Origin: Deltaproteobacteria bacterium
GTDB taxonomy: Bacteria; Desulfobacterota; Syntrophia; Syntrophales; UBA8958
Direction: 5' to 3'
DNA: 54,511 nucleotides
NCBI GenBank assembly: GCA_029553375.1
Contig: JAKPCH010000045.1
Location: 1 to 54,511 of the forward strand
Position numbers and translations under genes: made by a program. Below the pieces are notes generated by a model, which made no database searches, had not been told where the DNA came from, and saw only the letters and a program-made list of their open reading frames with translations. This document shows, piece after piece, positions 6,558 to 20,555 of the stretch (within the stretch, counting starts at the first letter, position 1; the number at the start of each line of letters is the position of its first letter).

Positions 6558-7562
6558 ATGAAGAGGAAAAAGATCCGGATCATACATTACGGTCTCGGTC
6601 CCATCGGTATGGAGACGGCCAGACTGGCCCAGACGAAGAGCAACCTCAAGACCGTGGGGGCCGTCGACATCTCGCCCGATCTCGTGGGGAAGGACCTGGG
6701 CACGATCCTGGGCCTGGGCAGGAGATTGGGGGTGGTCGTGACGGACAACCCCCAGAGACTCTTCGGCGAGGTGGAGGCGGACGTCGTCCTCCACACGGCG
6801 GGTTCCCGTATCCAGAAGATCTTCGATCAGCTCGTGGAGATCATCGAGGCGGGTATCAACATCATCTCCTCTTCGGAGGAGCTCCTGTTCCCGTTGAAGG
6901 AAAACGCGAGACTTGCCGCGAGACTGCACAATCTCGCCGTGGAGAACAAGGTGACCGTCCTGGGAACGGGCGTCAATCCCGGGTTCGTGATGGACGCCCT
7001 GCCCGTTTTCCTGACGGCCGTGTGCCAGGACGTGAGGACCGTCACGGTGAGACGGGTGGTCGACGCGACGACGAGACGCTACCCCTTGCAGAAAAAGATC
7101 GGGGCGGGCATGGACCCGAGGGACTTCCATGAACAGATCGCCCGGCACGAACTGGGGCACGTGGGCCTGAGGGAATCCCTGTATTTAGTGGCCGGTCGTC
7201 TGGGGATGGAACTCGACGACGTCATGGAGACCATCGAACCCGTCCTGGCCGATAAACCCGTGAAATCGAGTTATTTCTCCCTGACGCCGGGAGAGGTGGC
7301 GGGGATCAAGCACATCGTCAAGGGAAACCGGCAGGGGGAGAGGGTGATCACCCTAGAGTTGTACATGTACCTGGGGGCCGAAGACCCCCACGACGCCGTC
7401 TGTATCTGCGGGACGCCCAACATCAACCTTCGCATCGAGGGCGGGGTGGCGGGCGATCAGGCGACGGCCGCCGTCCTGGTCAACTCCATCGCGGCGGTCA
7501 TGGCGGCCCCCCCCGGCCTGACGACGGTGACGGAGATCACCCCTCCCCACTACTTCCGCTGA
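6558..7562 (+). CDS. 2,4-diaminopentanoate dehydrogenase-like NAD(P)-dependent oxidoreductase
   Basis: 334-residue enzyme of the dihydrodipicolinate-reductase-like fold. The Rossmann motif GLGPIG lies at residues 12-17, followed by a dinucleotide-binding half and a C-terminal substrate half with the TGVNPGFVMD loop. Length and motifs fit 2,4-diaminopentanoate dehydrogenase (Ord, clostridial ornithine fermentation) and its broader NAD(P)H-dependent amine dehydrogenase family. No other ornithine-pathway gene (OraS/OraE mutase, OrtA/OrtB thiolase) is in the window, so the true substrate is uncertain. The ATG at 6558 has a GAGGG SD directly upstream. It converges with the NuoF-GltD operon, 53 bp apart, across a hairpin. 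Confidence 0.78.
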   Translation: MKRKKIRIIHYGLGPIGMETARLAQTKSNLKTVGAVDISPDLVGKDLGTILGLGRRLGVVVTDNPQRLFGEVEADVVLHTAGSRIQKIFDQLVEIIEAGINIISSSEELLFPLKENARLAARLHNLAVENKVTVLGTGVNPGFVMDALPVFLTAVCQDVRTVTVRRVVDATTRRYPLQKKIGAGMDPRDFHEQIARHELGHVGLRESLYLVAGRLGMELDDVMETIEPVLADKPVKSSYFSLTPGEVAGIKHIVKGNRQGERVITLELYMYLGAEDPHDAVCICGTPNINLRIEGGVAGDQATAAVLVNSIAAVMAAPPGLTTVTEITPPHYFR

Positions 7563-7615: not shown

Positions 7616-10600
7616 TCAGATCTCGGCGTCGCAACGCAGACAGCGGCAGGCCTCCTTGATGGCCTCTTCCCTGGTGAAGCCGAGCTCCACCTCGGCGAAA
7701 CCCTTCCGGCGCTCCGGGCCGTGCAGCTCGGGCATCTTCGCCTGAGGTGTCTCCGTCGTCTCCTCGTCGATCTCGAAGGGGATGTCGATCTTCTCCTCTT
7801 CCGGTTCCTCCCACGGCGGTTCTCCGGCCGCGCGGCGGATGGCCTCGTCGATATCGCGGGCCGCCTGGTGTCCGGCGGCGATGGCCCCTATGACCGTGTC
7901 CGGTCCCGTCACGGCGTCTCCGCCGGCATAGAACTTCTCGGCCGTCGTCTTGCTCTTGCTTCCCGCCTCCAGGTCGAAGCAGTCCCACTTGTTGATGGAG
8001 ATGCCGCTTTCCCTGGGGACGAAGGACAGGTCGGGCACCTGGCCGATGGCGGCGATGACGGAATCCACGGAGAGGGTGAACTCGGACCCCTTGACGGGCA
8101 CGGGCTTCTTGCGGCCGCTCCGGTCGAATTCCCCGAGTCTCATCCGCTCGCAGGTGATGCCCGCCACCTTGCCGTCCTTACCTTCGATCTTGAGGGGGGC
8201 GACGAGGTATTCGATCTTGATCCCCTCTTCTTCGGCGGCGACGATCTCTTCGACGGCGGCGGGCATGTCCTTCCTCTCCCGCCGATAGAGGATCGTCACC
8301 TCGGCGCCCAGGCGCAGGGCGACCCGGGCGGCGTCGATGGCCGAATTACCACCCCCGATGACGGCCACGCGGGCGCCGAGACTCTTCTTGCCCGTAAGCC
8401 AGTCCTCTTCGTTCATGTTGAAGTCCCGGAGGAACTCCACGCCGCCGTAGACCCCCGCCAGCTCCTCTCCCGGCACCTCCATCCTCTGGCTGCGGTGGGC
8501 GCCGGGGGCCATGTAGACATAGTCGTAATCCTCCTCGAGCCTGGCGAAGGGTATGTCTCGACCGACTCTCACCCCGCAGCGGATCTCCACCCCGAGGGCC
8601 GCCACGTCGGCGATCTCCTGGGCAAGGATGTTACGCGGCAGGCGGTAGGCCGGGATCGCCCAGCGCATCATCCCTCCCGCTTCGGGCAGTTCCTCGAAGA
8701 CCGTCACCTTGTAACCGCGGAGGGCCAGGTCACGGGCCGCGGTAAGACCGGCGGGGCCGGCCCCCACGATGGCGATCTTCTCCTTCCGGGTGACGGGGAC
8801 GGGCTTGACGGCGGGCCGCGGGGCGTTGTCGGTGATGAAACGCTTCAGGTACTTGATGGCGAGGGGCTCGTCCATATTGCCCCGGCGGCACTTCGACTGG
8901 CACTTGTGATCGCAGACGCGGCCGCAGACGGCGGGGAAGGGGTTCGTCTTCAGAAGGACCTTGTAGGCGTCCTCGAAGCGGCCGGCGCGGATCAGGGCGA
9001 TATAGGCCGGGATATCCATCTCCACGGGGCAGGTGTGCTGGCAGGGGGATTTGAAGAGGGCCGTGCACACGGCGGCCTCGCAGCGGTGATTGCGGATGTG
9101 GTCTTCGTATTCCTTGCGGAAGTAGCGGATCGTGCTCAGGACGGGGTTGGGGGCCGTCTGGCCGAGGCCGCACAGGGAGGCCTCCTTGATGATGCCGGCC
9201 ATTTCCTCGAGGAGTTCGATGTCCCCCTCCTTGCCCTTGCCCTGGGTGATGTTCGTCAGGATCTCGAGCATCCTCTTGGTCCCCTCGCGGCAGGGGGTGC
9301 ACTTCCCGCAGGACTCGTCCTGGCAGAAGTCCATGAAGAACCGCGCCATGTCCACGGCGCAGGAATCTTCGTTCATGACGATGAGTCCGCCGGAGCCCAT
9401 GATGGCCCCCAGTTCCGTGACGTTTTCGTAATCGACGGGGGCGTTGAGGTGTTGGATGGGTATACAGCCGCCCGACGGGCCGCCCAACTGGGCCGCCTTG
9501 AATTTCTTGCCCTTGGGGATGCCGCCGCCGATGTCGTAGACGATGGTCCCCAGGGTGGTACCCATGGGCACCTCCACGAGGCCCACGTTATTCACGTCGC
9601 CCGTCAGGGCGAAGACCTTCGTGCCCTTGCTCTTCTCCGTCCCGACGCTGGCGAACCAGGCCGCGCCCTTGAGGATGATCTGGCCGACGTTGGCGAAGGT
9701 CTCCACGTTGTTGAGGACGGAGGGTTTCTGCCAGAGACCGGCGACGGCGGGGAAGGGCGGGCGGGGACGGGGCATGCCCCTCTTGCCCTCGATGGAGGTC
9801 ATGAGGGCCGTTTCCTCGCCGCACACGAAGGCCCCGGCGCCCTGGTAGATCTCGAGGTCGAAATCGAAACCCGTCCCCAAAATGTCCTTACCGAGGAGGC
9901 CCATCTCCTTGGCCTGGGCGATGGCGATGTTGAGGCGGTGGATCGCCAGGGGGTACTCGGCGCGGCAGTAGATGTAACCCTGGTGGGAGCCGATGGCCTT
10001 GGCGGCGATGACCATCCCCTCCAGGACGGCATGGGGATCGGCCTCCAGGACGCTCCGGTCCATGAAGGCCCCCGGGTCACCCTCGTCGGCGTTGCAGAGG
10101 ACGTATTTGACGTCTCCGGGGGACGAGGCACAGAACTTCCACTTGAGACCCGTGGGGAACCCGGCGCCTCCCCTCCCCCTGAGACCCGAGGCGAGGACCT
10201 CCTGTACGATCTCTTCGGGGGTCATCTGGGTCAGGGCCTTGGCCATACCCTGGTAACCGTCCCGGGCGATGTATTCCTCGATCTTTTCCGGATCGATGAG
10301 ACCGCGATTGCGGAGGACACGGAGCTCCTGGAGGGCGAAGAAGGGGATATCCTGCATGGTGGGGATGACGGCCTCGGTGGTCGGTTCCCGGTAAAGGAGC
10401 CGCTCCAGGATCCTTCCCTTTACCAGGTGCTCCTCGACGAGGTCCGGGACGTCCTGGGGCTTGATCATCATGTAGATCACCCCCTCGGGGTACACGACCA
10501 TGATGGGTCCCTGGGCGCAGAAACCGTTGCAGCCCGTCTCCACCACCTTGACCTCTTCGGCAAGGCCCCTCTTCTCCAGCTCCTCCAGCAGGGCCTTCTT

Positions 10601-10672
10601 CACCGTCAGGCTCCCCGAGGCGTGGCAGCCCGTACCACCGCAGATGAGCAGATGTGAGCGGAAAACTTTCAT
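7616..10672 (-). CDS. NuoF/HydB-type flavin Fe-S subunit fused to a GltD-like NAD(P)H oxidoreductase
   Basis: 1018-residue fusion. Residues 1-90 form a thioredoxin-like 2Fe-2S domain (C11, C16, C48, C52). A NuoF core follows: NADH site GRGGAGFPTG at 166-175, FMN region CNADEGDPGAFMD at 193-205 and CGEETALM at 284-291. SLBB and 4Fe-4S parts have C455, C458, C461 and C501. The second half is GltD/NfnB-like: an Fe-S entry domain with cysteines at 544, 548, 583, 587, 591 and 595, FAD motif GAGPAG at 637-642 and a nucleotide motif GGGNSAID further on. It should pass electrons between NADH, FMN, Fe-S clusters and a second FAD with NAD(P)H. NuoE and a 2Fe-2S protein precede it. No hydrogenase subunit follows; the operon ends here. 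An Stn-like or SfrB-like transhydrogenase is the best guess. Confidence 0.92.
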   Translation of the reverse strand: MKVFRSHLLICGGTGCHASGSLTVKKALLEELEKRGLAEEVKVVETGCNGFCAQGPIMVVYPEGVIYMMIKPQDVPDLVEEHLVKGRILERLLYREPTTEAVIPTMQDIPFFALQELRVLRNRGLIDPEKIEEYIARDGYQGMAKALTQMTPEEIVQEVLASGLRGRGGAGFPTGLKWKFCASSPGDVKYVLCNADEGDPGAFMDRSVLEADPHAVLEGMVIAAKAIGSHQGYIYCRAEYPLAIHRLNIAIAQAKEMGLLGKDILGTGFDFDLEIYQGAGAFVCGEETALMTSIEGKRGMPRPRPPFPAVAGLWQKPSVLNNVETFANVGQIILKGAAWFASVGTEKSKGTKVFALTGDVNNVGLVEVPMGTTLGTIVYDIGGGIPKGKKFKAAQLGGPSGGCIPIQHLNAPVDYENVTELGAIMGSGGLIVMNEDSCAVDMARFFMDFCQDESCGKCTPCREGTKRMLEILTNITQGKGKEGDIELLEEMAGIIKEASLCGLGQTAPNPVLSTIRYFRKEYEDHIRNHRCEAAVCTALFKSPCQHTCPVEMDIPAYIALIRAGRFEDAYKVLLKTNPFPAVCGRVCDHKCQSKCRRGNMDEPLAIKYLKRFITDNAPRPAVKPVPVTRKEKIAIVGAGPAGLTAARDLALRGYKVTVFEELPEAGGMMRWAIPAYRLPRNILAQEIADVAALGVEIRCGVRVGRDIPFARLEEDYDYVYMAPGAHRSQRMEVPGEELAGVYGGVEFLRDFNMNEEDWLTGKKSLGARVAVIGGGNSAIDAARVALRLGAEVTILYRRERKDMPAAVEEIVAAEEEGIKIEYLVAPLKIEGKDGKVAGITCERMRLGEFDRSGRKKPVPVKGSEFTLSVDSVIAAIGQVPDLSFVPRESGISINKWDCFDLEAGSKSKTTAEKFYAGGDAVTGPDTVIGAIAAGHQAARDIDEAIRRAAGEPPWEEPEEEKIDIPFEIDEETTETPQAKMPELHGPERRKGFAEVELGFTREEAIKEACRCLRCDAEI

Positions 10673-10695: not shown

Positions 10696-11079
10696 CTATT
10701 TTTGTTCCTCCGTCCCCCTTGCCAGGACGAAGGGGGTCTGGATCTCACCGGCAAGGATGTGGCGTTTGAAGACCTGGCGCATCTTGTTGGGGGTCATGTA
10801 CTCGTACTTGATAGGTTCCTGACCGAGGATCTCGACCGTCACCAGGGGTTCCCGGCTGCAGAGTCCCATGCACCCCGAGGTGGTCACGATGATATCCGTC
10901 GCCCCGGAGGCCCCGATTTCGTCCATGAGGGCGTCCATGACGGTCTTGGCCCCGGAGGCGATCCCGCAGGTGCCCATGTGGACCGTCACCTTGACCCTTT
11001 TACCGCCCTCCCGCAGGGAGGTCTCCGCCTGCACCTTTTCCTTGATCTTCTTCAGGTCCTCTATGGTGATTTTTGCCAT
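10696..11079 (-). CDS. Thioredoxin-like [2Fe-2S] ferredoxin-type subunit
   Basis: 127-residue protein like the stand-alone 2Fe-2S subunits of NADH- or NADP-linked [FeFe] hydrogenase operons (HndB-like). A helical N-terminus (1-28) leads into the fold with GTCGIASGA (C38) and SGCMGLC (C70, C74). Only three cysteines sit in the usual ligand region; the fourth ligand of a standard NuoE-type cluster is not evident, as in some relatives. The ATG at 11079 follows an AGGGTGG SD; the upstream in-frame extension overlaps nuoE and is rejected. It lies 17 bp after nuoE and 23 bp before the NuoF fusion, consistent with a subunit of the same cytoplasmic complex. Confidence 0.85.
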   Translation of the reverse strand: MAKITIEDLKKIKEKVQAETSLREGGKRVKVTVHMGTCGIASGAKTVMDALMDEIGASGATDIIVTTSGCMGLCSREPLVTVEILGQEPIKYEYMTPNKMRQVFKRHILAGEIQTPFVLARGTEEQK

Positions 11080-11096: not shown

Positions 11097-11591
11097 TTAT
11101 TCGTATTGATTCAAAACTTCCTTTACCTTGGCGGGTTTCATGCGGCCGTGGACCTCGTCGTCGATGACCACGACGGGGCCGAGACCGCAAGCACCGAGGC
11201 ACCGTACCGTCTCGTAGGTGAAGCGACGGTCGGCCGTCGTTTCGCCTTCCTTGACATCGTAAAGCTTCTCGATGGTCTCGGCGATGGCTTTACCGCCCCG
11301 GACGTAGCAGGCGGTGCCGAGACAGACCCGGACGGTGTGGCGGCCCCGGGGGGTCATGGTGAAGAAGGAGTAGAAGGTCACCACGCCGTAGACCCGGCTC
11401 AAGGGGAGGTTAAGCTCCGCGGCGATCACCTTCTGGACCGGCACGGGCAGGTATTCGAGGGAGACCTGGGCTTCTTCCAGGACGGGGATCAGACCCCCGG
11501 GTTTGCCCTTGTATCGCTCTATGATCTCTTTGAGCTTTTCCACCTGTTCCGGCGTGAATTCCTTGAGCAGAGTGTCGTAATCAGCTTTCAT
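11097..11591 (-). CDS. NuoE/HydC-type [2Fe-2S] subunit
   Basis: 164-residue 24-kDa-type subunit of NADH-oxidising complexes. The helical N-terminus is followed by the GVVTFYSFF motif (69-77) and a thioredoxin-like domain whose four 2Fe-2S ligands are C90, C95, C131 and C135 (CLGTAC and CLGAC). Length and spacing match NuoE/HydC/HndA. The ATG at 11591 is preferred to a TTG at 11594 because AGGAGG lies 8 nt before it. The next two genes encode another 2Fe-2S protein and the NuoF-GltD fusion, so a soluble HydBC-like flavin/Fe-S core is the likely product. In bifurcating hydrogenases this subunit helps connect NuoF to the rest of the complex. Confidence 0.92.
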   Translation of the reverse strand: MKADYDTLLKEFTPEQVEKLKEIIERYKGKPGGLIPVLEEAQVSLEYLPVPVQKVIAAELNLPLSRVYGVVTFYSFFTMTPRGRHTVRVCLGTACYVRGGKAIAETIEKLYDVKEGETTADRRFTYETVRCLGACGLGPVVVIDDEVHGRMKPAKVKEVLNQYE

Positions 11592-11622: not shown

Positions 11623-12180
11623 TCAGGCCGATGACCCGATTTCACCAAGCCCCTCTCTGACATATTCCTTGATAAAGGAGAGCACCTCCGCGTTGTTCAG
11701 GGGCACGTCCCCCAAGATATCTCTTATATCCGCCGTCTCGAACTTGAAGACCTTACCGTTGCATTCATGGCGATAATGGATGTTTATCCCCGGATTGCCC
11801 GCCACCAGGGTCATGATCGCCCCGGGGACGTCCCCCAGGGGCTGTCTGTCCCAGTGGCTTTTCTGGAAATCCACCCGGACCCTTGTACCCGAACTGGGCG
11901 CGGAAATCAATGACAGATCACCCCCCGCCCTCCTGGCCGCCTCTTTCAGCATGGGGAGCCCCAACCCGACCCTCCTGACCTTCTTGGTGGTGTAGAAGGG
12001 GTCGAGGGCCCTCTCGAGGGTCTCCTCGTCCATGCCGACTCCGTCGTCCCTGATCTCTATGGCGATCCGGTCTTGTGCGTCGTCCTCGTCGATCAGGATC
12101 CAGATGTTTGCGGCCTCGGCCCGGATGGAGTTCTCGCCGATGTCGACTATGTGGAGGGCCAATTCCTGCAAGGGACTCAC
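11623..12180 (-). CDS. HATPase (GHKL) domain protein of hydrogenase-type operons
   Basis: 185-residue protein with a histidine-kinase-type ATP-binding domain: N-box HIVDIGENSIRA (10-21), G1 RDDGVGMD near 45 and a GLGL motif near 73 after FYTTKK. There is no sensor, HAMP or phospho-acceptor histidine domain. The C-terminal 65 residues form a separate unknown piece. Genes of this kind sit next to NuoE in [FeFe]-hydrogenase operons of Firmicutes and syntrophs, where they are called sensor kinases although partners are unknown. The GTG start overlaps the PHP gene's TGA by 4 bp (GTGA), implying coupled translation. Regulation of the downstream Fe-S complex is inference from conserved gene order. 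Confidence 0.85.
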   Translation of the reverse strand: MSPLQELALHIVDIGENSIRAEAANIWILIDEDDAQDRIAIEIRDDGVGMDEETLERALDPFYTTKKVRRVGLGLPMLKEAARRAGGDLSLISAPSSGTRVRVDFQKSHWDRQPLGDVPGAIMTLVAGNPGINIHYRHECNGKVFKFETADIRDILGDVPLNNAEVLSFIKEYVREGLGEIGSSA

Positions 12181-12914
12181 TCCTCGACGTAGCGCCCCTC
12201 GAGCCTGTGAAGGGCCAGGCGCAACTCGGCGAAAGAGGCCTCGGCCAGCCAGGCCCTCGTGAAAGATCTTCCTATTTGGGTCAGAAAGTGGGCGTCCGAG
12301 GAGCGAAGGAAGACGAAAGGGGCGAGTTCCGGGTGTTTTTCACGGAAGGATGACACGGATCCCGAGGTGATCTCCAGGGCGTCAAAGGGCAATGCGGGGT
12401 CGATGAACCCCAGTTGGCCGATGATGCCGAAACTTTGCCTCTCCACGTGGGAGGGGACGAGCAGACCGCCCCGGGAGTGAACGGCCGTCAGTACCTCTTC
12501 CAGGGAGAGACCCGTGGCCCCGATGAGGAGACGCTCGTTGATGCCCTCCACCTCGTCGAATTCGTTCACGATGGGCTGGCAGCCGAAGTACCGCTCGTCG
12601 TTGAGCCCCGGGAGGCATCGGTAAACGACCTCCTGAAAGGCCTCCAGGCTTTCCAAATTGTCAAAGATCGCCAGTAGGTGGACCTCCTCCCTGCTGGACA
12701 CCTCCATCCCGGGCAGGACGACGATCCCCTTCCCCTCGGCCGCCTGCTGGACATAACGGACGTTTTCCGAGGCGTTATGGTCGCAGACGGCGATCATATC
12801 GAGGCCCACCTCCCGGGCCCTCGCGACGATCGCCCGGGGGGTCATGTCGAGGTCACCACACGGGGACAGGCACGTGTGGATGTGAAGGTCACAGCGAAAG
12901 GGTTTCAGCTTCAA
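12177..12914 (-). CDS. PHP-domain metal-dependent phosphoesterase
   Basis: 245-residue PHP domain protein of the TrpH/YciV type. Metal-binding motifs are visible: DLHIHTCLSPCGD (10-21, H11 and H13), CDHNASEN at 44-51, a glutamate in MEVSSREEVHLL and the late SSDAHF motif. The fold usually hydrolyses phosphoesters or nucleotides with two or three metal ions. Such genes recur beside hydrogenase-type NuoEF modules together with DRTGG and HATPase proteins; the substrate is unknown. The best in-frame start is a TTG at 12914, with AGGAG unusually far upstream, so the start is uncertain. Its stop overlaps the HATPase gene start by 4 bp. Confidence 0.87.
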   Translation of the reverse strand: MKLKPFRCDLHIHTCLSPCGDLDMTPRAIVARAREVGLDMIAVCDHNASENVRYVQQAAEGKGIVVLPGMEVSSREEVHLLAIFDNLESLEAFQEVVYRCLPGLNDERYFGCQPIVNEFDEVEGINERLLIGATGLSLEEVLTAVHSRGGLLVPSHVERQSFGIIGQLGFIDPALPFDALEITSGSVSSFREKHPELAPFVFLRSSDAHFLTQIGRSFTRAWLAEASFAELRLALHRLEGRYVEE

Positions 12915-12937
12915 AAGATCGCTTGACCCTACTCCTT

Positions 12938-13297
12938 TCAGCCGGAGCGACCGGTCTTCTGGCTTGATATCATCTCAAAGAGCATGCCCGCGGTCTCGAA
13001 GGCCGAGCGGTTCGAGACGAGGATCGGTATCCCCTCTCTCTTTGCCTTTTCCAGGGTATCGGCCGCCGGTTCGGCACCTCCCGCCAGGATGATCCCCGCG
13101 TGATCCTTGAGGGAGGCCACGGCCACGATGTTCTGGTGGGTTTGGCGGGTTATCCAGAGATCACCCTCTTTACTCCCCGCCATGACGTCGCTCAGGAGAT
13201 CGCCGGTGTAACCCCCGTGGACCTCCGTCCCCATTTTGTCCTCGCCGGACCGCACCTTGAGGTCCAGGGCCGCGACGATCTCTCCCAAAGTGGCCAT
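12938..13297 (-). CDS. DRTGG-like domain protein, second copy
   Basis: 119-residue small protein with the fold of DRTGG domains, which elsewhere lie between the BioD-like and phosphotransacetylase parts of long Pta enzymes. The key segment is TGDLLSDVMAGSKEGDLWIT (30-49), followed by an Ala/Val-rich core and a C-terminal IPILVSNRSAFETAG stretch. It is a paralogue of the gene at 13751-14125 (similar order: LLSDVMA/LMSDVLA, TAGMLFEM/TAGRLYSR). No enzymatic motif is seen, and a ligand-binding or signalling role is inferred from context only. It lies between the SpoIIAB-like kinase and the PHP gene, as in [FeFe]-hydrogenase operons. Confidence 0.8.
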   Translation of the reverse strand: MATLGEIVAALDLKVRSGEDKMGTEVHGGYTGDLLSDVMAGSKEGDLWITRQTHQNIVAVASLKDHAGIILAGGAEPAADTLEKAKREGIPILVSNRSAFETAGMLFEMISSQKTGRSG

Positions 13298-13308
13298 GAG
13301 CGACTCCC

Positions 13309-13776
13309 TCAGATACCGTCGAAGAGCTTGTCGATCTTGATCACCATCTTCAGATGGGTGCCCTTTCCCACATCGGAGGTGATACGGAAGAAATCGGAAA
13401 AGTTGCGGATGTTACAGAGACCCATCCCCGCTCCGAAACCCATCTCCCGGATCTTGTCCGTGGCCGTTGAATATCCCTCCTGCATGGCCAGTTCTATGTC
13501 GGCGATTCCCTGACCCTTGTCGATGGCCTCGATCATCACGTAATCCGAGGTGACCTTGAGATAGATGCGGCCGTGGTCGGCGTAGGAGACGATGTTGATC
13601 TCCGACTCGTAGGTCACTAGGGCCGCCCTCCTCACCACGTCATTGGGCAGTCTCATGTGTTTCAGGAGGGCCTTTATCTGGCTCGATACGGAACCCGCGG
13701 TATCGAAATTGCCTCCTTCCACGAAAAAAGAGTTTTCATAAAGGGCCGCCTCAGGTGTTGACACGATCTTCTTCAA
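13309..13776 (-). CDS. SpoIIAB/RsbW-like ATP-binding anti-sigma or kinase protein
   Basis: 155-residue GHKL ATPase like the anti-sigma factor serine kinases. Motifs: E-rich N-box region around LVTYESEINIVSY (53-65), G1 AIDKGQGIAD near 84-93, then GFGAGMGLCNIRNFSD near 113-128. Proteins of this type are often annotated as hydrogenase-associated serine/threonine kinases when found in such operons. The TTG at 13776 has GGAGAAGG just upstream and overlaps the preceding DRTGG gene by 26 bp; a GTG at 13764 is an alternative. No sigma factor or STAS anti-anti-sigma gene lies nearby, so its target may be another protein of the cluster. Confidence 0.85.
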   Translation of the reverse strand: MKKIVSTPEAALYENSFFVEGGNFDTAGSVSSQIKALLKHMRLPNDVVRRAALVTYESEINIVSYADHGRIYLKVTSDYVMIEAIDKGQGIADIELAMQEGYSTATDKIREMGFGAGMGLCNIRNFSDFFRITSDVGKGTHLKMVIKIDKLFDGI

Positions 13777-14125
13777 CCTTCTCCAGGCAGCCTACCATAC
13801 CGCGGGAATAGAGCCGGCCCGCCGTTTCGAAGAGGATGTACTTTGTGGCCAGGATGGGGATGCGCAGTTCCTCGGCCAGGCGGATCGCCTCCATGCTGGG
13901 TCTCTTGCCGCGGACCATGATGATGGCCGCTATGTCGAGGACGTCGGAGGTGCGGATCACCTGGGAGTTGGTGAGACCGGTTAGAAGGAGGCTGCCGGGT
14001 TTGGCAAAGGCCAGGACGTCGCTCATGAGGTCGGCGCCGAAACCCGTTTTCACCTCTTTGTCCAGCTGATCGTGACCGACGATCACCTCTGCCTCCAGTA
14101 TGTCTTTAACCTCGCGAAGTGTCAC
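13751..14125 (-). CDS. DRTGG-like domain protein, first gene of operon
   Basis: 124-residue DRTGG-type protein, first gene of the eight-gene NuoEF-GltD operon. Visible core: VKTGFGADLMSDVLAFAKPG (25-44), then a nucleotide-fold-like IAAIIMVRGKRPS segment and IPILATKYILFETAGRLY near the C-terminus. It resembles the paralogue at 12938-13297 in length and motif order; the two flank the SpoIIAB-like gene. The GTG at 14125 follows AAGGAGAAGAAGG. Function is unknown; pairing of two DRTGG proteins with PHP and GHKL ATPases is a recurring arrangement next to hydrogenase-type NuoEF genes. A candidate promoter for the operon lies about 85-110 bp upstream. Confidence 0.8.
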   Translation of the reverse strand: MTLREVKDILEAEVIVGHDQLDKEVKTGFGADLMSDVLAFAKPGSLLLTGLTNSQVIRTSDVLDIAAIIMVRGKRPSMEAIRLAEELRIPILATKYILFETAGRLYSRGMVGCLEKVEEDRVNT

Positions 14126-14208: not shown

Positions 14209-14236
14209 AGTTAACACATGGGCCCCGTCATGTCAA
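14209..14236 (-). promoter_or_regulatory. Candidate sigma-70 promoter of the NuoEF-GltD operon
   Basis: On the minus strand a perfect -35 TTGACA (14236-14231) is followed after 16 nt by TTAACT (14214-14209), a weak -10 preceded by TG. The predicted start is near 14202, giving a leader of about 75 nt before the first DRTGG gene. It lies between this operon and the divergent xer gene. The good -35 but poor -10 could indicate activator dependence, which is inference. Confidence 0.5.
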
Positions 14237-14316
14237 CTGATTTGTCCGGCCCCTCCGTTATCCAAGCCGGGAAAAATACTTTGCTTCCTGCCGGCAAATG
14301 GGCTAAAAATCGGCCT

Positions 14317-15201
14317 ATGGACGAGATGGAGGGCTTCCTGCATTTCCTGGCGGCGGAGAAGGGGGTGTCGGTTCATACCCTCGATGCCTACAGCCGCGAT
14401 CTCAAGAGGTTTTACGATTATGTCGTCCGCCTCGGCATCGAGGACCTCGGGGCGGTAAAGACGGAGGAGCTCATGGGGTACCTGACGGAACTGAGATCCT
14501 CCGGCCTGGCCCCCTCTTCCGTGAATCGCAACCTGGCCGCCATACGGAGCTTTTTTCGGTATCTGGCCGGGGAAAGCAAGGGGAAGAGCACAGCCGTGAC
14601 GGATCTCCCCAGGGCGAGACTGTGGTTCCGTCTGCCGAAGACCATCACGCGGGAAGAGATGGAGAGGATCTTGAAGGCCCCGGGCACGGCAACCCCCCAA
14701 GCCGTCAGGGACACGGCCCTCATGGAGCTTATGTACGCCACGGGCCTGAGGGTCTCCGAGGCGGCCGACCTCGAGGTGGGCAGCGTCAACTGGCAGGTCG
14801 GTTATCTCGCCGTCCGGGGAAAAGGGGAAAAGGAGCGGATCGTCCCCGTCGGCCGCCACGCCCTGGAGATGACACGCGCCTATGTGGAAGAGATCCGTCC
14901 CCTGTTTCAAAAAAGCGCCAAGACGAGGATCCTGTTCCTCAATCGTTTCGGTAAACGCTTCTCCCGCCAGGGCCTTTGGAAACTGATCAGGAAGTACGCC
15001 TTGACGGCCGGTTTGGGCGACAAGGTCCATCCCCATACCTTTCGTCACTCCTTCGCCACCCACCTCCTGGAGGGAGGGGCCGACCTGAGGTCGGTGCAGG
15101 TGATGCTCGGCCACGCCCACATCTCCACGACCCAGATCTATACCCATGTCACGACGACCCATCTGAAGGAGATCCACCGGCGGTATCACCCCCGGGGTTG
15201 A
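14317..15201 (+). CDS. xerD: Tyrosine recombinase, XerC/XerD type
   Basis: 294-residue site-specific tyrosine recombinase, probably resolving chromosome dimers at dif with a partner. The SAM-like N-terminal core-binding domain spans about 1-90. The catalytic domain keeps the full set: R145 (TGLRVSEAADL), K169 (RGKGEKERIVPV), H240 and R243 (HPHTFRHSFATHLLEGGADL), H266 (LGHAHISTTQIYTH) and nucleophile Y275. The ATG at 14317 fits family N-termini; the frame is open to an ATG at 14218 but that adds 33 unrelated residues. No SD is obvious. A weak TTGCTT-N17-TAAAAA promoter (14281-14309) would give a nearly leaderless mRNA. XerC versus XerD cannot be settled by eye, and no integron or phage context is present. 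Confidence 0.88.
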   Translation: MDEMEGFLHFLAAEKGVSVHTLDAYSRDLKRFYDYVVRLGIEDLGAVKTEELMGYLTELRSSGLAPSSVNRNLAAIRSFFRYLAGESKGKSTAVTDLPRARLWFRLPKTITREEMERILKAPGTATPQAVRDTALMELMYATGLRVSEAADLEVGSVNWQVGYLAVRGKGEKERIVPVGRHALEMTRAYVEEIRPLFQKSAKTRILFLNRFGKRFSRQGLWKLIRKYALTAGLGDKVHPHTFRHSFATHLLEGGADLRSVQVMLGHAHISTTQIYTHVTTTHLKEIHRRYHPRG

Positions 15202-15213
15202 GAGGTAGGGTCC

Positions 15214-17238
15214 GTGGAACTCCATACGAGGAAGAAGAGAGATCGAGGCCCCCGCCTTTCGCTGCCGGGGCTGAAGAAAGGGATGACCGTGGCCGCCTTC
15301 GCCGTCCTCTCCCTGGCGGCGTTGGCGGCGGCGGCCGTCCTTGTCTTTTGGGAGTCGGGCAAGGGCGTGACCTTCGCGGGGCGGCGTCTTGTCAACACCG
15401 TCGCCTTCGCCGTCCGGGGCGGTGAGCCGCGGGTCTATTTCCTGGAGGGGGAGAAAAACGGGCAGACCTTCCGCCTGGAGAGGGATCGGCCCCTGACGGT
15501 GACCTATCGCGATGAGTTCGTCTTCCGGAGGATCGTCGCCGACGAGTGGCGGGCGGAGAACCTCTCCCTCGTCGTCGGGGAGGGGTCCGGGGGGGACGCG
15601 TTGGGGATTCCTCAACGGGGGGTGGACCTCGTCGACCGTCTCCTCTCCGCCACGGGAGGTCACCGCGGCGAGGCGTCCGAGGGGGAGACGAAGGTCGCCG
15701 TCCTCCACCGGGGCCGTCCCGTGGCGTCCTTTCCCCTGCGGGTCCTCCTTTCACCCCAGGACATGCTCCGTCACGCCCGTCAGGCGCGGGACACCCAGGT
15801 GAAGGTCGCCTACCTGAAGCGGGCCATTGCCATGGGCGGCGACGATCCGGAGCTGCGCAAGATGCTCGCCGACCTTTACGCGCGGTCCGGTCACGTGGAA
15901 GAGGCCTTGGGCCAGTATCAGACGGTCCTTGATAAGAACCCCAACGATCTCAAGGCCCTCTCCGAATCGGCGGCGGCCAGCGTCCGGGCGGGTGATTACC
16001 GCCGGGCCGTTTCCACCCTCGAGAGGCTCCTGAAACTGAATCCCCGCGACTCCGCCGCCCATGCCAATCTTGCCGCCGCATGGGGCAAGATGGGTAACTG
16101 GAAGAAGGCCGTGGCCCATTACCGTGAGGCCGTCCGCCTCCAGCCCGAACAGACGATCCTCCGCGTCCGCCTCGCGGAGGCCCTGGAGATGGCGGGCGAT
16201 CTCAAGGGGGCGATCGCCGTTTATCAGGAGATCCTCAAGAGGGAACCCCAGAACTGGGCGGTCCAAAACGCCCTCGGGGCCGCCTACCTCAAGGGCAAGG
16301 CCTATGACAGGGCGACGGAGACGTACCTCGCCGTGGTCAAGAAAAAACCCGATGCCGCCGCCTATGCCAATCTGGGCGTCGCCTACGGCATGCGGGGGAA
16401 AACGGCCCAGGAGATAGAGAGTTACAGAAAGGCCCTTGCTCTGGCCCCGAAGAATGCCGTCGTTTGGTATAATATGGCCGTAGCCCTGGAAAAGAGCGGG
16501 CGGGAGAAGGAGGCCTACGAAGCCTACGAGAAGGCCTTGGCCCTCGCCCCCGACGACCTGGAGACGGCCCTGCGCCTGGCGGCCCTCAAGGTCAAGAGAA
16601 AGGACTATGACGGGGCCCTGCGGCTCTACGAAAGGGTACTCAAGGGCCGGCCGAAGGATCCCGCCGTCTATGCCGCCGCGGCCTTCGCCTACGGGGAGAA
16701 GAAGCGTCATCGGGAGGCCGCGGCCCTTTACGAGAAGGCCGTTGGTTACGGATCCAAGGACCCGCAGGTCTATTTCAACCTCGGTCATGCTTATGAAGAA
16801 CTGGGGAACAAACGGTCAGCGGCGTCCATGTACGAACGGGCGGCGGCCCTGCGACCCACGGAGGGCGTCTTGGCCAAACTCGGGTCCTATTACCTGGCGG
16901 AGGGTAATCACGACGGGGCGATTCACGCCTACAAGCGCCTCATCGCCATGAAGCCCAAGAAAACGGCTTATTACTGGTCCCTCGGCCAGGCCTACGGGCG
17001 CAAGGGGGATCTGGACAAGGAGATCGAGACCTACCGCCAGGCCTTGAAGATCGACGGAGAGGACGACGCCGTCTGGCTCAGCCTGGGGGAGGCGTACGAG
17101 AAGAAGGGTTTACTGGAGAAGGCCCTCGAGGCGTACAAGAAGGCCTACGGATTCAACCCGGAATCGGACAAGGCCGCGCGGCGCATACCGGCCCTGCGCA
17201 TCCGGATAATGAAGCAGAAACAGGAAGGTCCATCGTGA
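15214..17238 (+). CDS. Membrane-anchored TPR repeat protein
   Basis: 674-residue protein. A basic N-terminus and one membrane helix (about 26-45) precede a region of about 130 residues of unknown fold. Roughly 13 tetratricopeptide repeats then fill residues 190-660, with typical W/Y-A-G-A-Y-P spacing (for example DLETALRLAALKVKRKDYDG). TPR solenoids bind other proteins, so a periplasm-facing scaffold is likely. The GTG at 15214 has GAGAGGTAGGG upstream. It lies 12 bp after xer and its stop overlaps the kdsA start by 4 bp (GTGA), tying it to lipopolysaccharide genes. A role in envelope assembly is suggested by this position only. I do not recognise a specific family for the N-terminal region. 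Confidence 0.82.
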   Translation: MELHTRKKRDRGPRLSLPGLKKGMTVAAFAVLSLAALAAAAVLVFWESGKGVTFAGRRLVNTVAFAVRGGEPRVYFLEGEKNGQTFRLERDRPLTVTYRDEFVFRRIVADEWRAENLSLVVGEGSGGDALGIPQRGVDLVDRLLSATGGHRGEASEGETKVAVLHRGRPVASFPLRVLLSPQDMLRHARQARDTQVKVAYLKRAIAMGGDDPELRKMLADLYARSGHVEEALGQYQTVLDKNPNDLKALSESAAASVRAGDYRRAVSTLERLLKLNPRDSAAHANLAAAWGKMGNWKKAVAHYREAVRLQPEQTILRVRLAEALEMAGDLKGAIAVYQEILKREPQNWAVQNALGAAYLKGKAYDRATETYLAVVKKKPDAAAYANLGVAYGMRGKTAQEIESYRKALALAPKNAVVWYNMAVALEKSGREKEAYEAYEKALALAPDDLETALRLAALKVKRKDYDGALRLYERVLKGRPKDPAVYAAAAFAYGEKKRHREAAALYEKAVGYGSKDPQVYFNLGHAYEELGNKRSAASMYERAAALRPTEGVLAKLGSYYLAEGNHDGAIHAYKRLIAMKPKKTAYYWSLGQAYGRKGDLDKEIETYRQALKIDGEDDAVWLSLGEAYEKKGLLEKALEAYKKAYGFNPESDKAARRIPALRIRIMKQKQEGPS

Positions 17239-18068
17239 GACAGATCCGTATCAAAGATATCGTCATCGGCGGCGGGGCCCCATTCGTCCTCATCGCCGGC
17301 CCCTGCGTCATCGAGGATGAGACGAAGACGAGGGAGACGGCCCTTTTCCTCAAGGAACTCACCGCCCGTCTCCGGATCCCCTTCATCTTCAAGGCCTCCT
17401 ACGACAAGGCCAACCGCACCTCCCTGAAGGGCTTCAGGGGGCCGGGGATCGAGGACGGCCTGGCCGTCCTTGAGTCCATCAGGAGGGATTTTGACATTGC
17501 CGTCCTTTCCGACGTCCACCGCTTCGAAGAGATAGAGAGGGCGGTGGAGGTCCTCGATGTCGTCCAGATCCCGGCCTTTCTCTGCCGCCAGACGGATTTC
17601 GTCATGGAGGTGGCAAGGGCCTCCAGGGTGGTGAACGTCAAGAAGGGTCAATTCCTTTCCCCCTGGGAGGTGGCCAACATCGTGGAGAAGGTCCGGGCGG
17701 CGGGGAACGAAAACCTCCTGATCACCGAGAGGGGGACCACCTTCGGCTACAACAACCTCGTGGCCGATTTCAGGTCCCTCCCCATCCTGAGGCGGATGGG
17801 TTATCCCGTGGTATTCGACGCCACCCACAGTGTCCAACTCCCCGGGGCGTCCGGCACGGCCTCGGGGGGACAGCGTTCCATGGTCCCATACCTGGCCCGG
17901 GCCGCCGCGGCCGTGGGGGTGGACGGTATCTTCATGGAGGTCCACCCCTGCCCCGACGAGGCCCTGTGCGACGGACCGAACTCCGTTTCCCTGGACTCCC
18001 TGGAGGATCTGCTTCTGACCTTGGCGGAAATAGATGGTCTGGTGAAGAAAAAGGAGAGTAAAGAGTAA
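17235..18068 (+). CDS. kdsA: 3-deoxy-8-phosphooctulonate (Kdo8P) synthase
   Basis: 277-residue TIM-barrel enzyme that condenses phosphoenolpyruvate with arabinose 5-phosphate to Kdo 8-phosphate, an early step of the lipopolysaccharide inner core. Diagnostic motifs are IAGPCVIED (20-28), FKASYDKANRTS, SDVHR, a Q-I-P-A-F-L-C-R-Q stretch, VFDATHSVQLPG and EVHPCPDEALCDGP. Cysteine C24 in GPCVIE marks the metal-dependent class, where the metal-independent E. coli type has Asn. The GTG start overlaps the TPR gene by 4 bp. kdsC follows with a TAATG overlap. Neither kdsB nor kdsD is in the window. Confidence 0.95.
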   Translation: MRQIRIKDIVIGGGAPFVLIAGPCVIEDETKTRETALFLKELTARLRIPFIFKASYDKANRTSLKGFRGPGIEDGLAVLESIRRDFDIAVLSDVHRFEEIERAVEVLDVVQIPAFLCRQTDFVMEVARASRVVNVKKGQFLSPWEVANIVEKVRAAGNENLLITERGTTFGYNNLVADFRSLPILRRMGYPVVFDATHSVQLPGASGTASGGQRSMVPYLARAAAAVGVDGIFMEVHPCPDEALCDGPNSVSLDSLEDLLLTLAEIDGLVKKKESKE

Positions 18069-18658
18069 TGGGAGAGAATGGACGCGACCCCTCCGCGAAG
18101 AACGCCGGGGTCTCTTTGCAGGAGAGGTTGAGGAAGATCCGCCTCTTGATCCTCGACGTGGACGGGGTCTTGACGGACGGGCGTATCGTCATGAACGATC
18201 GGGGCGAGGAGACCAAGTTCTTCGACGTCAAGGACGGCCACGGCATCAAGCTCCTCATGCGATACGGCATCGACGTGGTCTTCCTGACGGGGAGGCAATC
18301 GGCCGTCGTGGAACACCGGGCCAGTGATCTGGGGGTGAGGGAGGTCCATCAGAAGATTTGGAACAAGTTGGAAATCTACGAGGAGATCATCGCGAGGCGC
18401 GGCCTGAGGGACGAGGAGGTCGCCTTCGTGGGTGACGATATCGTGGACGTACCCCTCTTCCACCGGGTGGGCTTTGCCGCAGCCTGTGCCGACGCCGTCG
18501 GCGAGGCCAAGAGGGCGGCCCACTACGTGACGGGCCGCAGGGGGGGAAGGGGTGCCGTCCGGGAGGTCTGTGACATGATCCTCAAGGCCCGGGGGGATTG
18601 GCAGGAGGTGGCGGCCCGATACGGCCTGGACTGCGGGGATCGGGATCGTTTGCTTTAA
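18068..18658 (+). CDS. kdsC: Kdo8P phosphatase, HAD family
   Basis: 196-residue HAD-superfamily phosphatase releasing Kdo from Kdo 8-phosphate. Motif I is LLILDVDGVLTDG with D30 and D32 as nucleophile and acid-base, motif II is the threonine in FLTGR, motif III a lysine near NKLEIYEE and motif IV FVGDDIVDVP. There is no cap domain, as expected for the C0 tetrameric KdsC. The first 20 residues and the C-terminal tail (GDWQEVAARYGL) are slightly longer than in E. coli. The ATG at 18068 shares one base with the kdsA stop. The order kdsA-kdsC-lptC-lptA-lptB-rpoN is that of many proteobacteria. Confidence 0.93.
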   Translation: MGENGRDPSAKNAGVSLQERLRKIRLLILDVDGVLTDGRIVMNDRGEETKFFDVKDGHGIKLLMRYGIDVVFLTGRQSAVVEHRASDLGVREVHQKIWNKLEIYEEIIARRGLRDEEVAFVGDDIVDVPLFHRVGFAAACADAVGEAKRAAHYVTGRRGGRGAVREVCDMILKARGDWQEVAARYGLDCGDRDRLL

Positions 18659-18676
18659 GGGTTCCTCGGTGGTATA

Positions 18677-19228
18677 GTGACGCGGAAGAAAAAAGGTCTG
18701 GTGTTGGTCCTGCTGATCGCCGTCGCGGCGATGGGCGCTTTTCTCCTCTTTCAGACGGGCGGTAAGGAACGGCAGACCCTCAACAAGATCATCCCCGACG
18801 AAGTGGACCTCCAGGTGCGGGATGTCGTCTACACAGACGTGGGGAGTCGGGGTGTGAAATGGGAGGTTCGGGCGGCCAAGGGGGTGTTCGTCCGCAGGGA
18901 CGGCGAGGCCCGTCTGGAAGGGGTTACGGCGCGCATCCTCTTCGATGACGGCCGGTCCTACGAAATAAGGGGCGACACGGGCACCTACAACACGACGACG
19001 AAGGACATGGCCCTCAAGGGCAACGTCACCATCGTTTCGCCCGGGGGTGAGCGGGCCTCTACAGACCAGGTCTACTACCACGGGAAGGACAGGGTCCTCA
19101 CGACGGATTCCGTGGTTACGCTGGAGACGGAAAAGAGCAGACTGCAGGGCAAGGGGATGATCTTGAGAATCGACACGAGGGAGATGAGGCTCCAGAAGGA
19201 CATCTCCGCCTTGCTCAAGGGCAGATAG
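18677..19228 (+). CDS. lptC: LPS export protein LptC
   Basis: 183-residue inner-membrane protein of the Lpt bridge that passes lipopolysaccharide from LptB2FG to LptA. One N-terminal helix (about 7-25) is followed by a periplasmic beta-jellyroll, seen as alternating strands with Y-E-I-R-G-D, G-T-Y-N-T and D-M-A-L-K-G-N-V-T-I-V, typical of the LptC/OstA-like fold. The GTG at 18677 has GGTGG four bases before it; no better start is near. The stop is TAG, which shows that amber codons are used as ordinary stops in this genome. It sits 18 bp after kdsC and before lptA. Confidence 0.87.
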   Translation: MTRKKKGLVLVLLIAVAAMGAFLLFQTGGKERQTLNKIIPDEVDLQVRDVVYTDVGSRGVKWEVRAAKGVFVRRDGEARLEGVTARILFDDGRSYEIRGDTGTYNTTTKDMALKGNVTIVSPGGERASTDQVYYHGKDRVLTTDSVVTLETEKSRLQGKGMILRIDTREMRLQKDISALLKGR

Positions 19229-19246
19229 GCCCTGACGGGGGTGGTG

Positions 19247-19813
19247 ATGATCCATCGCATGGGAAAATTTTTGTTACCGTTGCTTTTTTTACTGCTCCTG
19301 CCCGCCGAGGGGGTCTCGGGGGCCCAGGGGGGACCTCAGGCCATCATGCCGAAAGGCCAACCCATCCGCATCACCTCCGATCGTCTGGAGGCCTTGGGGC
19401 AGAAGGGTATGGTCGTCTTCATCGGCAACGCCACGGCCGTCCAGGGGGACAGGATCCTCAAGGCGGACCGCCTGCATCTGTTCTACCGGCAGGGTTCAGA
19501 ACAGGCTAAGCCCGAGGGCGTGGGCGCCCCCGGCGGGGGGGATCTGGAGCGCATCGAGGCCCACGGTCGGGTGAGGCTCATCCAGGGAAAGCGGGTGGTC
19601 ACGGGGGATGAGGCCGTCTTCGATCAGGCCGCCCAGACCATCGTCTTGACGGGGAACGCCGTCATGTCCGAGGAGGGGAATGTCGTGCGGGGCCATAAGA
19701 TAACGGTCCTCCTCAACGAAAATCGCGGTGTCGTCGAAGGGCTCGACAAAGGGCGGGTCCAGGCGACCGTTTTCCCTTCCCGGAATCTCCAGGAGGGGGG
19801 CAAGAAACGTTAA
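19247..19813 (+). CDS. lptA: LPS transport periplasmic protein LptA
   Basis: About 188 residues with a cleavable signal peptide (hydrophobic run then VSGAQ) and an OstA/LptA beta-jellyroll: PIRITSDRLEALGQKGMVVF, GNATAVQGDRILKADRL, and later TGNAVMSEEGNVVRGHKITV. It should form the periplasmic bridge between LptC and LptD. A Pro/Gly-rich insertion (near EGVGAPGGG) breaks the repeat pattern between the two halves. Start is uncertain among GTG 19241, GTG 19244, ATG 19247 and ATG 19259; ATG 19247 has GGGGG five bases upstream. The stop TAA is followed by one base and the lptB ATG, so translation is probably coupled. Confidence 0.88.
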   Translation: MIHRMGKFLLPLLFLLLLPAEGVSGAQGGPQAIMPKGQPIRITSDRLEALGQKGMVVFIGNATAVQGDRILKADRLHLFYRQGSEQAKPEGVGAPGGGDLERIEAHGRVRLIQGKRVVTGDEAVFDQAAQTIVLTGNAVMSEEGNVVRGHKITVLLNENRGVVEGLDKGRVQATVFPSRNLQEGGKKR

Positions 19814-19814
19814 C

Positions 19815-20552: not shown

Positions 20553-20555
20553 CCT

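What the first reader, a model, noticed from the sequence alone, without database searches (positions are those of the whole stretch)
12177..14125. Five-protein signalling module of unknown mechanism (two DRTGG, two GHKL ATPases, PHP)
Two paralogous DRTGG proteins flank a SpoIIAB-like ATPase, and a PHP phosphoesterase and a second GHKL ATPase follow with a 4-bp overlap. No sigma factor, STAS protein, response regulator or sensor is present. The proteins may form a closed phospho- or nucleotide-switch that acts on the Fe-S complex itself and not on transcription. The module is conserved beside hydrogenases but its biochemistry is not described to my knowledge.
Basis: partly seen in the sequence, partly recalled or inferred. 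Interest (0 to 1): 0.7.

Follow-up and report, generated by a model that had tools for sequence, protein, structure and literature searches.

The report
Switch module for electron-bifurcating enzyme complexes
A set of five small signalling proteins, found in at least fifteen bacterial phyla and nearly always encoded next to the core of electron-bifurcating enzymes (hydrogenases and formate dehydrogenases), looks like a dedicated regulator of those enzymes; its mechanism is undescribed, and in relatives it carries exchangeable sensors that hint at redox and energy sensing.

Summary
The operon reads DRTGG1 - SpoIIAB-like ATPase (HATP1) - DRTGG2 - PHP - GHKL ATPase (HATP2) - NuoE - 2Fe-2S protein - NuoF/GltD fusion. 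Of 96 relatives with long flanks, 83 keep all five genes; 79 have NuoE and 78 NuoF within about 10 kb. In 247 phylum genomes the module tracks one clade of BfuB/NuoF (53 of 56 module genomes, 15 of 191 others), not [FeFe]-hydrogenase, which this genome lacks. The constant partner is the BfuBC bifurcating core; the third-substrate subunit varies ([FeFe], formate dehydrogenase, possibly [NiFe] here). New: relatives carry exchangeable inputs: a group D HydS-like protein between HATP1 and DRTGG2, a CBS pair fused to HATP1, or REC proteins, including REC-NuoE fusions. Most HydS-bearing genomes sampled lack HydF/HydG, which suggests Fe-S rather than H2 sensing. Catalytic and ligand residues are conserved; no STAS, sigma or PP2C recurs locally. 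Most likely it is an ATP- or nucleotide-driven switch acting on the BfuBC complex. 'Dedicated regulator' is well supported; direct action on the complex and the chemistry are inferred. The window holds the sensor-less form.

The parts
13751..14125 (-). DRTGG1, 124 aa, GTG start with a good ribosome-binding site; invariant D32, S35, T49 across the family
   Evidence: Pfam PF07085 1.4e-11; family invariants; AF2 pLDDT 93, best fold match 2ioj (DRTGG) and 3l2b/3l31 (CBS-DRTGG of a pyrophosphatase)
13309..13776 (-). HATP1, SpoIIAB/RsbW-like GHKL ATPase, TTG start (or GTG at 13764), overlapping DRTGG1 by 26 (or 14) bp
   Evidence: Pfam HATPase_c; TIGR01925 spIIAB 3.3e-13; closest PDB chains SpoIIAB; invariant E57, N61, DxGxG, GAGMGL
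12938..13297 (-). DRTGG2, 119 aa; invariant D33-L-L-S36, W48, T50, H54, N56
   Evidence: Pfam PF07085 1.6e-8; family invariants
12177..12914 (-). PHP phosphoesterase, 245 aa, metal-ligand positions invariant (H11, H13, D45/H46, E71, H79, H156, D207, H209)
   Evidence: Pfam PF02811; alignment A1; 133 sequences; closest solved: EndoQ, 5'-3' exoribonuclease, PHP phosphoesterases
11623..12171 (-). HATP2, second GHKL ATPase with a conserved C-terminal extension (HxD..PxG) and no DHp domain; ORF extends to GTG at 12180
   Evidence: Pfam; start inferred from alignment A2; AF2 pLDDT 90, best folds MutL, WalK, MLH1, topo VI-B
11097..11591 (-). NuoE/BfuC-like 2Fe-2S thioredoxin-like subunit
   Evidence: Pfam PF01257 2e-50; ATG at 11591 after AAGGAGG
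10696..11079 (-). Second small 2Fe-2S thioredoxin-like protein (Fd2), 127 aa from ATG 11079
   Evidence: Pfam PF01257 2.2e-4; length agrees with relatives
7616..10672 (-). NuoF/BfuB-like subunit: N-terminal 2Fe-2S domain, FMN domain, then a GltD-like Fer4_20 + FAD/NAD(P) domain
   Evidence: Pfam; TIGR01959 and PRK12771
7570..7589 (-). Terminator-like hairpin with T-run right after the operon
   Evidence: GGGGGGG-AATTCG-CCCCCCC then GTTTTTTT; 6 such patterns found in the region against 6.2 expected, so only its position after the last stop codon supports it

Best explanation
The five proteins are a dedicated regulatory module for electron-bifurcating complexes built on a NuoE/NuoF (BfuBC) core. 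A sensor input changes the state of the SpoIIAB-like ATPase HATP1; in relatives this input is a group D HydS-like Fe-S protein, a CBS pair on HATP1, or REC proteins, and in the window it is none of these. HATP1 sets the state of the two DRTGG proteins, either by phosphorylating their invariant Ser or by delivering or reading an adenine nucleotide. The PHP enzyme hydrolyses the phosphate or nucleotide and resets the switch. HATP2, encoded beside BfuC, couples the switch to the complex and gates its activity. Shown here: the genes, their conservation, linkage, fusions and intact sites. Inferred: all interactions, the direction of the signal, the chemistry, and that the action is on the complex rather than on transcription.
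For: Conserved order and tight spacing (median gaps -4 to +11 nt within the module) in 132 non-redundant loci. The module goes with the BfuBC core whatever the third-substrate subunit is: HydA, FdhA or other BfuA types. 53 of 56 module genomes have a high-scoring BfuB against 15 of 191 others (Fisher p 3e-36, not corrected for phylogeny). Gene fusions link the parts: DRTGG1-HATP1 (L089, L258, L260), HydS-DRTGG1 (L036), HydS-DRTGG2 (L136, L271, L277), PHP-HATP2 (L146, L156, L259) and REC-NuoE (L140, L161). CBS-HATP1 and HydS-like proteins behave as alternative inputs: 20 and 49 loci, none with both in the first set, one (L263) with both later. Catalytic and ligand positions are invariant. HATP2 lies next to NuoE, and in one phylum sample the order is NuoE-HATP2-Fd2-NuoF-HydA, which matches by position the extra, cofactor-less subunit HydD of the purified A. 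woodii hydrogenase (PMC6288185; gene order of A. woodii from my own knowledge). No STAS, sigma or PP2C family is among the commonest families of 125 small extra ORFs; REC is the commonest, with 8.
Against: No interaction or activity was measured. 16 of 96 loci have neither NuoE nor NuoF within about 10 kb, and PHP-HATP2 pairs occur without either (L217, L219-L221). PHP relatives of known structure act on nucleic acids and nucleotides, not on phosphoproteins, so the 'phosphatase' step may be a nucleotide step. That HydD equals HATP2 rests on gene order and the absence of a cofactor only; HydD is smaller (about 15 kDa) and the A. woodii sequence was not compared. An AraC-type regulator next to a HydS gene elsewhere (PMC8163306) leaves room for transcriptional output.
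Confidence: 0.5

Rival explanations
1. Transcriptional partner switching: HATP1 is an anti-sigma/anti-regulator kinase that binds a remote STAS protein or regulator, and the module controls expression of the operon, not the enzyme.
For: HATP1 is closest to SpoIIAB in sequence and among solved structures. The genome holds STAS and SpoIIE proteins elsewhere. A HydS relative is flanked by an AraC-type regulator (PMC8163306). hfs deletions change adhE transcripts (PMC5707799).
Against: No STAS, sigma or PP2C family is among the commonest families of 125 small extra ORFs around the module. The three STAS/SpoIIE loci of this genome each carry their own RsbW-like ATPase. HATP1 consistently sits between DRTGG genes and fuses to one of them.
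Confidence: 0.2
2. Assembly or repair factors: the GHKL ATPases, PHP and DRTGG proteins help assemble, insert cofactors into or quality-control the Fe-S/FMN complex.
For: HATP2's best fold match is MutL and its gene lies between subunit genes in some phyla. The module is constant while catalytic subunits vary.
Against: CBS, REC and HydS-like inputs are typical of signalling, not assembly. Many BfuB-type proteins exist in genomes with no module.
Confidence: 0.2
3. H2-sensing accessory of [FeFe]-hydrogenase: the module belongs to the group D sensory hydrogenase and reports H2.
For: In many relatives a group D-like HydS protein is encoded inside the module, and Land et al. 2020 propose a sensory role (PMC8163306).
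Against: The window's genome has no Fe_hyd_lg_C protein. Only 9 of 56 module genomes have HydF, no more than expected (p 0.23). 17 of 19 genomes with HydS in the module have neither HydF nor HydG, so a normal diiron site is unlikely to be made there.
Confidence: 0.07
4. Neutral neighbours: five unrelated genes that merely share an operon.
For: None found.
Against: Order kept across many phyla, several gene fusions, invariant sites.
Confidence: 0.03

Closest known systems
SpoIIAB/RsbW partner-switching systems
   Same: HATP1 is a GHKL ATPase closest to SpoIIAB, with the catalytic Glu and Asn and both glycine boxes conserved
   Different: No STAS antagonist, PP2C phosphatase or sigma factor recurs; DRTGG proteins and a PHP enzyme take those places
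HydD / BfuD, the extra subunit of some electron-bifurcating hydrogenases (A. woodii HydABCD)
   Same: HATP2 lies at the matching position (NuoE-HATP2-Fd2-NuoF-HydA in one phylum sample) and is predicted to carry no cofactor
   Different: HydD is about 15 kDa, HATP2 about 20 kDa; sequences not compared; the other four proteins are not described with it in the papers read
Group D (M2e) putative sensory [FeFe]-hydrogenase, TamHydS
   Same: The embedded protein of relatives has the C-terminal Cx2Cx4Cx16C motif (71 of 71), loss of C299, Ser/Thr at M353 (64 of 75), no PAS domain, and lies beside bifurcating complexes
   Different: Absent from the window; in most genomes of the phylum sample it occurs without HydF/HydG and often beside formate dehydrogenase or other complexes
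CBS-DRTGG regulatory region of family II pyrophosphatases
   Same: DRTGG1 has this fold (2ioj, 3l2b, 3l31); CBS pairs occur in the same module in relatives
   Different: DRTGG and CBS lie on separate proteins together with GHKL ATPases; no pyrophosphatase domain
Bfu family of electron-bifurcating enzymes (Schut et al. 2022, PMC9304861)
   Same: The linked NuoE and NuoF are a BfuBC-type core
   Different: The regulatory module is not discussed in that paper's text (terms searched); the window's NuoF carries a GltD-like extension and no BfuA is encoded in the operon

Membership tests
SpoIIAB/RsbW partner-switching system | GHKL kinase with catalytic Glu, Asn and glycine boxes | tested here: met
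   HATP1 E57, N61, DxGxG, GAGMGL invariant in 119 sequences; nearest solved structure SpoIIAB
SpoIIAB/RsbW partner-switching system | Cognate STAS protein and sigma factor or PP2C in the locus | tested here: not met
   None in the operon; none among the 25 commonest families of 125 small extra ORFs around related modules; remote STAS loci have their own RsbW-like ATPase
Two-component histidine kinase (for HATP2) | DHp domain with phosphoacceptor His | tested here: not met
   185 aa, ATPase fold starts at residue 7 in the model, C-terminal extension only
Bfu electron-bifurcating family | BfuC (NuoE-like) and BfuB (2Fe-2S + FMN + 4Fe-4S) core | tested here: met
   Pfam/NCBIfam hits of NuoE and NuoF with N-terminal 2Fe-2S domain
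Bfu electron-bifurcating family | All of clusters B2-B5 present | not tested
   Only domain hits were checked; after the NuoF part a GltD-type Fer4_20 domain follows
Bfu electron-bifurcating family | A BfuA-type or other third-substrate subunit | tested here: inconclusive
   Not in the operon; a BfuA-like 590-aa protein with [NiFe]-hydrogenase small and large subunits lies on another contig of the genome, and likewise in the sister genus
Group D (M2e) [FeFe]-hydrogenase (embedded protein in relatives) | C-terminal Cx2Cx4Cx16C, four H-cluster Cys, C299 lost, M353 to Ser/Thr, no PAS | tested here: met
   71/71, 75/75, 75/75 and 64/75; domain content
Group D (M2e) [FeFe]-hydrogenase (embedded protein in relatives) | Diiron H-cluster | tested here: inconclusive
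   Ligand Cys kept, but HydF and HydG absent in 17 of 19 genomes
HydD of A. woodii hydrogenase (for HATP2) | Sequence homology and co-purification | not testable with these tools
   Only gene order and lack of cofactor agree
PHP phosphoesterase | Complete set of metal ligands | tested here: met
   Invariant in 133 sequences
DRTGG domain | DRTGG fold | tested here: met
   Pfam; Foldseek 2ioj TM 0.79

The most novel reading that the evidence does not exclude
An undescribed post-translational control system for electron bifurcation: a nucleotide- or phospho-switch (DRTGG/GHKL/PHP/GHKL) that docks on the BfuBC core and gates it regardless of whether the complex uses H2, formate or another substrate, with plug-in sensors, including a [FeFe]-hydrogenase-like protein repurposed as an Fe-S redox sensor without its diiron site.
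Probability: 0.35. Interest if true: 0.85.

Novelty: new variant of a known kind. Interest (0 to 1): 0.62.

Why it matters
Electron bifurcation sets the energy budget of many anaerobes, and how its enzymes are switched on and off is largely unknown. A module that follows the bifurcating core across phyla and across different substrates, with exchangeable sensors, would be a general control point. It would also give testable roles to three orphan observations: the extra HydD subunit, the group D sensory hydrogenases, and the REC-NuoE fusions.

Tried and rejected
Rejected: a [FeFe]-hydrogenase accessory (genome has none); a local sigma/STAS partner; histidine kinase for HATP2 (no DHp). HydF at a loose E-value gave general GTPase hits, so only matches over the curated cut-off were counted, plus one genome (G093) with split fragments.
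Full report
What is there. On the - strand the operon runs DRTGG1 (13751-14125), HATP1 (13309-13776), DRTGG2 (12938-13297), PHP (12177-12914), HATP2 (11623-12171 or 12180), NuoE (11097-11591), a small 2Fe-2S protein (10696-11079) and a 1018-aa NuoF/GltD fusion (7616-10672). A hairpin with a T-run follows the last stop codon. Downstream lies a convergent 2,4-diaminopentanoate dehydrogenase-like gene, so no catalytic subunit is encoded in the operon. The stated 4-bp PHP/HATP2 overlap depends on a GTG start that the family alignment does not favour.

Partner in this genome. The genome has no Fe_hyd_lg_C protein at all. A BfuA-like 590-aa protein is encoded on another contig together with [NiFe]-hydrogenase small and large subunits and a protease-like ORF, and the same block occurs in the other sampled genome of the family. 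The NuoE/NuoF of the window may therefore serve a [NiFe] complex; this is inferred from gene content and is not shown.

Conservation. I collected 55 neighbourhoods from genomes of the same phylum, 80 named loci from many phyla and two annotated records. Of 132 non-redundant loci, 96 have at least 2.6 kb upstream and 5 kb downstream; 83 of these hold all five genes, 79 NuoE and 78 NuoF. Within the module the median gaps are -4 to +11 nt. Record titles name delta-proteobacterial lineages, Nitrospirae, Bacteroidetes, Chlorobi, Ignavibacteria, Aminicenantes, Cloacimonadota, Stahlbacteria, Delongbacteria, Zixibacteria, Planctomycetes, Spirochaetes, Chloroflexi, Cyanobacteria, Firmicutes and others. 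In two further phylum samples HATP2 was found in 21 of 199 and 43 of 119 genomes, and the 40 neighbourhoods read there mostly show the same order.

What it follows. The third-substrate subunit next to the core varies: HydA (14 of 96 loci), FdhA (39 of 96; often an ORF cut at a stop after 'NVDHCARL', which I read as a selenocysteine codon) or other types. In 247 genomes of the phylum the module is present in 56. A high-scoring BfuB (at least 324 bits to the window's N-terminal 240 aa) is present in 53 of these and in 15 of the other 191; at the three exceptions the locus lies on a short contig or at a contig end. The module shows no association with the HydF maturase (9 of 56 against 19 of 191, p 0.23). 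These tests are not corrected for phylogeny, and the BfuB query comes from the window, which favours its own clade. BfuB-like proteins as such are much more widespread than the module (194 of 247 genomes at E 1e-35, complex I NuoF included).

Inputs. Three architectures occur. (a) In 41 of 96 loci a 424-460-aa protein lies between HATP1 and DRTGG2, with two N-terminal 4Fe-4S motifs, an H-domain and a C-terminal FeS domain (PF04060). It carries the published features of group D (M2e) sensory hydrogenase: Cx2Cx4Cx16C in 71 of 71, all four H-cluster cysteines in 75 of 75, loss of C299 in 75 of 75, Ser/Thr at M353 in 64 of 75, no PAS (PMC8163306). In the phylum sample 17 of 19 genomes with it have neither HydF nor HydG, so it probably holds only 4Fe-4S clusters there; one of the 17 (G201) has several other Fe_hyd_lg_C proteins, so its lack may be an assembly gap. 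(b) In 15 loci HATP1 is about 300 aa with an N-terminal tandem CBS pair. (c) In 40 loci, including the window, there is neither. (a) and (b) never coincide in the first set (49, 20 and 0 loci; Fisher p 3e-6, uncorrected) and once in a later set (L263). REC proteins are the commonest small extra family (8 of 125 ORFs), and in two Nitrospirae loci a REC domain is fused to NuoE (L140, L161).

Physical logic. Fusions connect DRTGG1 with HATP1 (L089, L258, L260), HydS with DRTGG1 (L036) or DRTGG2 (L136, L271, L277), and PHP with HATP2 (L146, L156, L259). PHP and HATP2 also occur as a pair without the rest (L217, L219-L221). This suggests two sub-units of the switch: HydS/CBS-HATP1-DRTGG and PHP-HATP2. 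Sites are intact: the GHKL boxes, the PHP metal ligands, and invariant Asp/Ser/Thr in DRTGG1 and Asp/Ser/Trp/Thr/His/Asn in DRTGG2. HATP1 is closest to SpoIIAB; PHP to nucleotide- and nucleic-acid-acting enzymes; DRTGG1 to the CBS-DRTGG region of a pyrophosphatase, which points to adenine nucleotides; HATP2 to MutL/MLH1 and histidine-kinase ATPase domains.

HATP2 and HydD. In one phylum sample (that of a locus titled Firmicutes) the order is PHP-NuoE-HATP2-Fd2-NuoF-HydA. The purified A. woodii hydrogenase contains an extra cofactor-less subunit HydD (PMC6288185), and 'BfuD' has been proposed as regulatory in Hydrogenedentota (PMC11406978). The equation HATP2 = HydD is a lead from position, not a test; in C. 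aceticum the name HydD is used for a 2Fe-2S protein (PMC7911925).

Remote partners. The genome has STAS and SpoIIE proteins in three other loci, each with its own RsbW-like ATPase, so HATP1 is not needed there; cross-talk is not excluded.

Verdict. A dedicated regulatory module of BfuBC complexes: well supported by linkage. Direct action on the complex: plausible, about even. Exact chemistry: unknown. I found no description of the module as a whole in the papers that could be searched; most subscription literature was not covered.

Noticed in passing
window 7616-10672: NuoF fused to a GltD-like Fer4_20 + FAD/NAD(P) domain; a BfuB of this make-up (DPD_II + FAD) is shown for Hydrogenedentota in PMC11406978. 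It might let the core react with NADP(H).
   Followed up: partly
L181 5168-9477 (G000:C6) and L182 662-5008: BfuA-like protein followed by [NiFe]-hydrogenase small and large subunits and a protease-like ORF, unlinked to the window operon; candidate partner of the window's NuoE/NuoF.
   Followed up: partly
L044 3809-4903, L074 15218-16279 and similar loci: FdhA-like ORFs of about 351-364 aa end at 'NVDHCARL' before a stop, as expected for an in-frame selenocysteine codon; the rest follows as a separate ORF in several loci.
   Followed up: partly
L140 7508-8371, L161 12591-13460: Receiver (REC) domain fused to the N-terminus of NuoE, a direct link between a two-component input and the bifurcating core.
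   Followed up: partly
embedded HydS-like proteins, e.g. L051 8222-9496, L068 2900-4246: Group D-like [FeFe]-hydrogenase proteins keep all H-cluster cysteines in genomes that lack HydF and HydG.
   Followed up: yes
L217, L219, L220, L221: PHP-HATP2 pair without DRTGG, HATP1 or NuoE/NuoF; in L219 and L220 it is followed by a cNMP-binding-like ORF (by eye) and a 707-710-aa membrane protein-like ORF (the L219 one has no Pfam match).
   Followed up: partly
L069, L070, L072, L079, L090: Reduced form DRTGG1-HATP1-PHP without DRTGG2 or HATP2 and without NuoE/NuoF nearby, in one family (f22).
   Followed up: no
L047, L050, L100: A second DRTGG1 copy just upstream of DRTGG1.
   Followed up: no
window 6558-7562 (+): 2,4-diaminopentanoate dehydrogenase-like gene convergent with the operon.
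   Followed up: no
window 14218-22043 (+): Tyrosine recombinase-like and TPR genes, then a kdsA/kdsC/lpt/rpoN-like cluster (by eye); housekeeping, unrelated to the finding.
   Followed up: no
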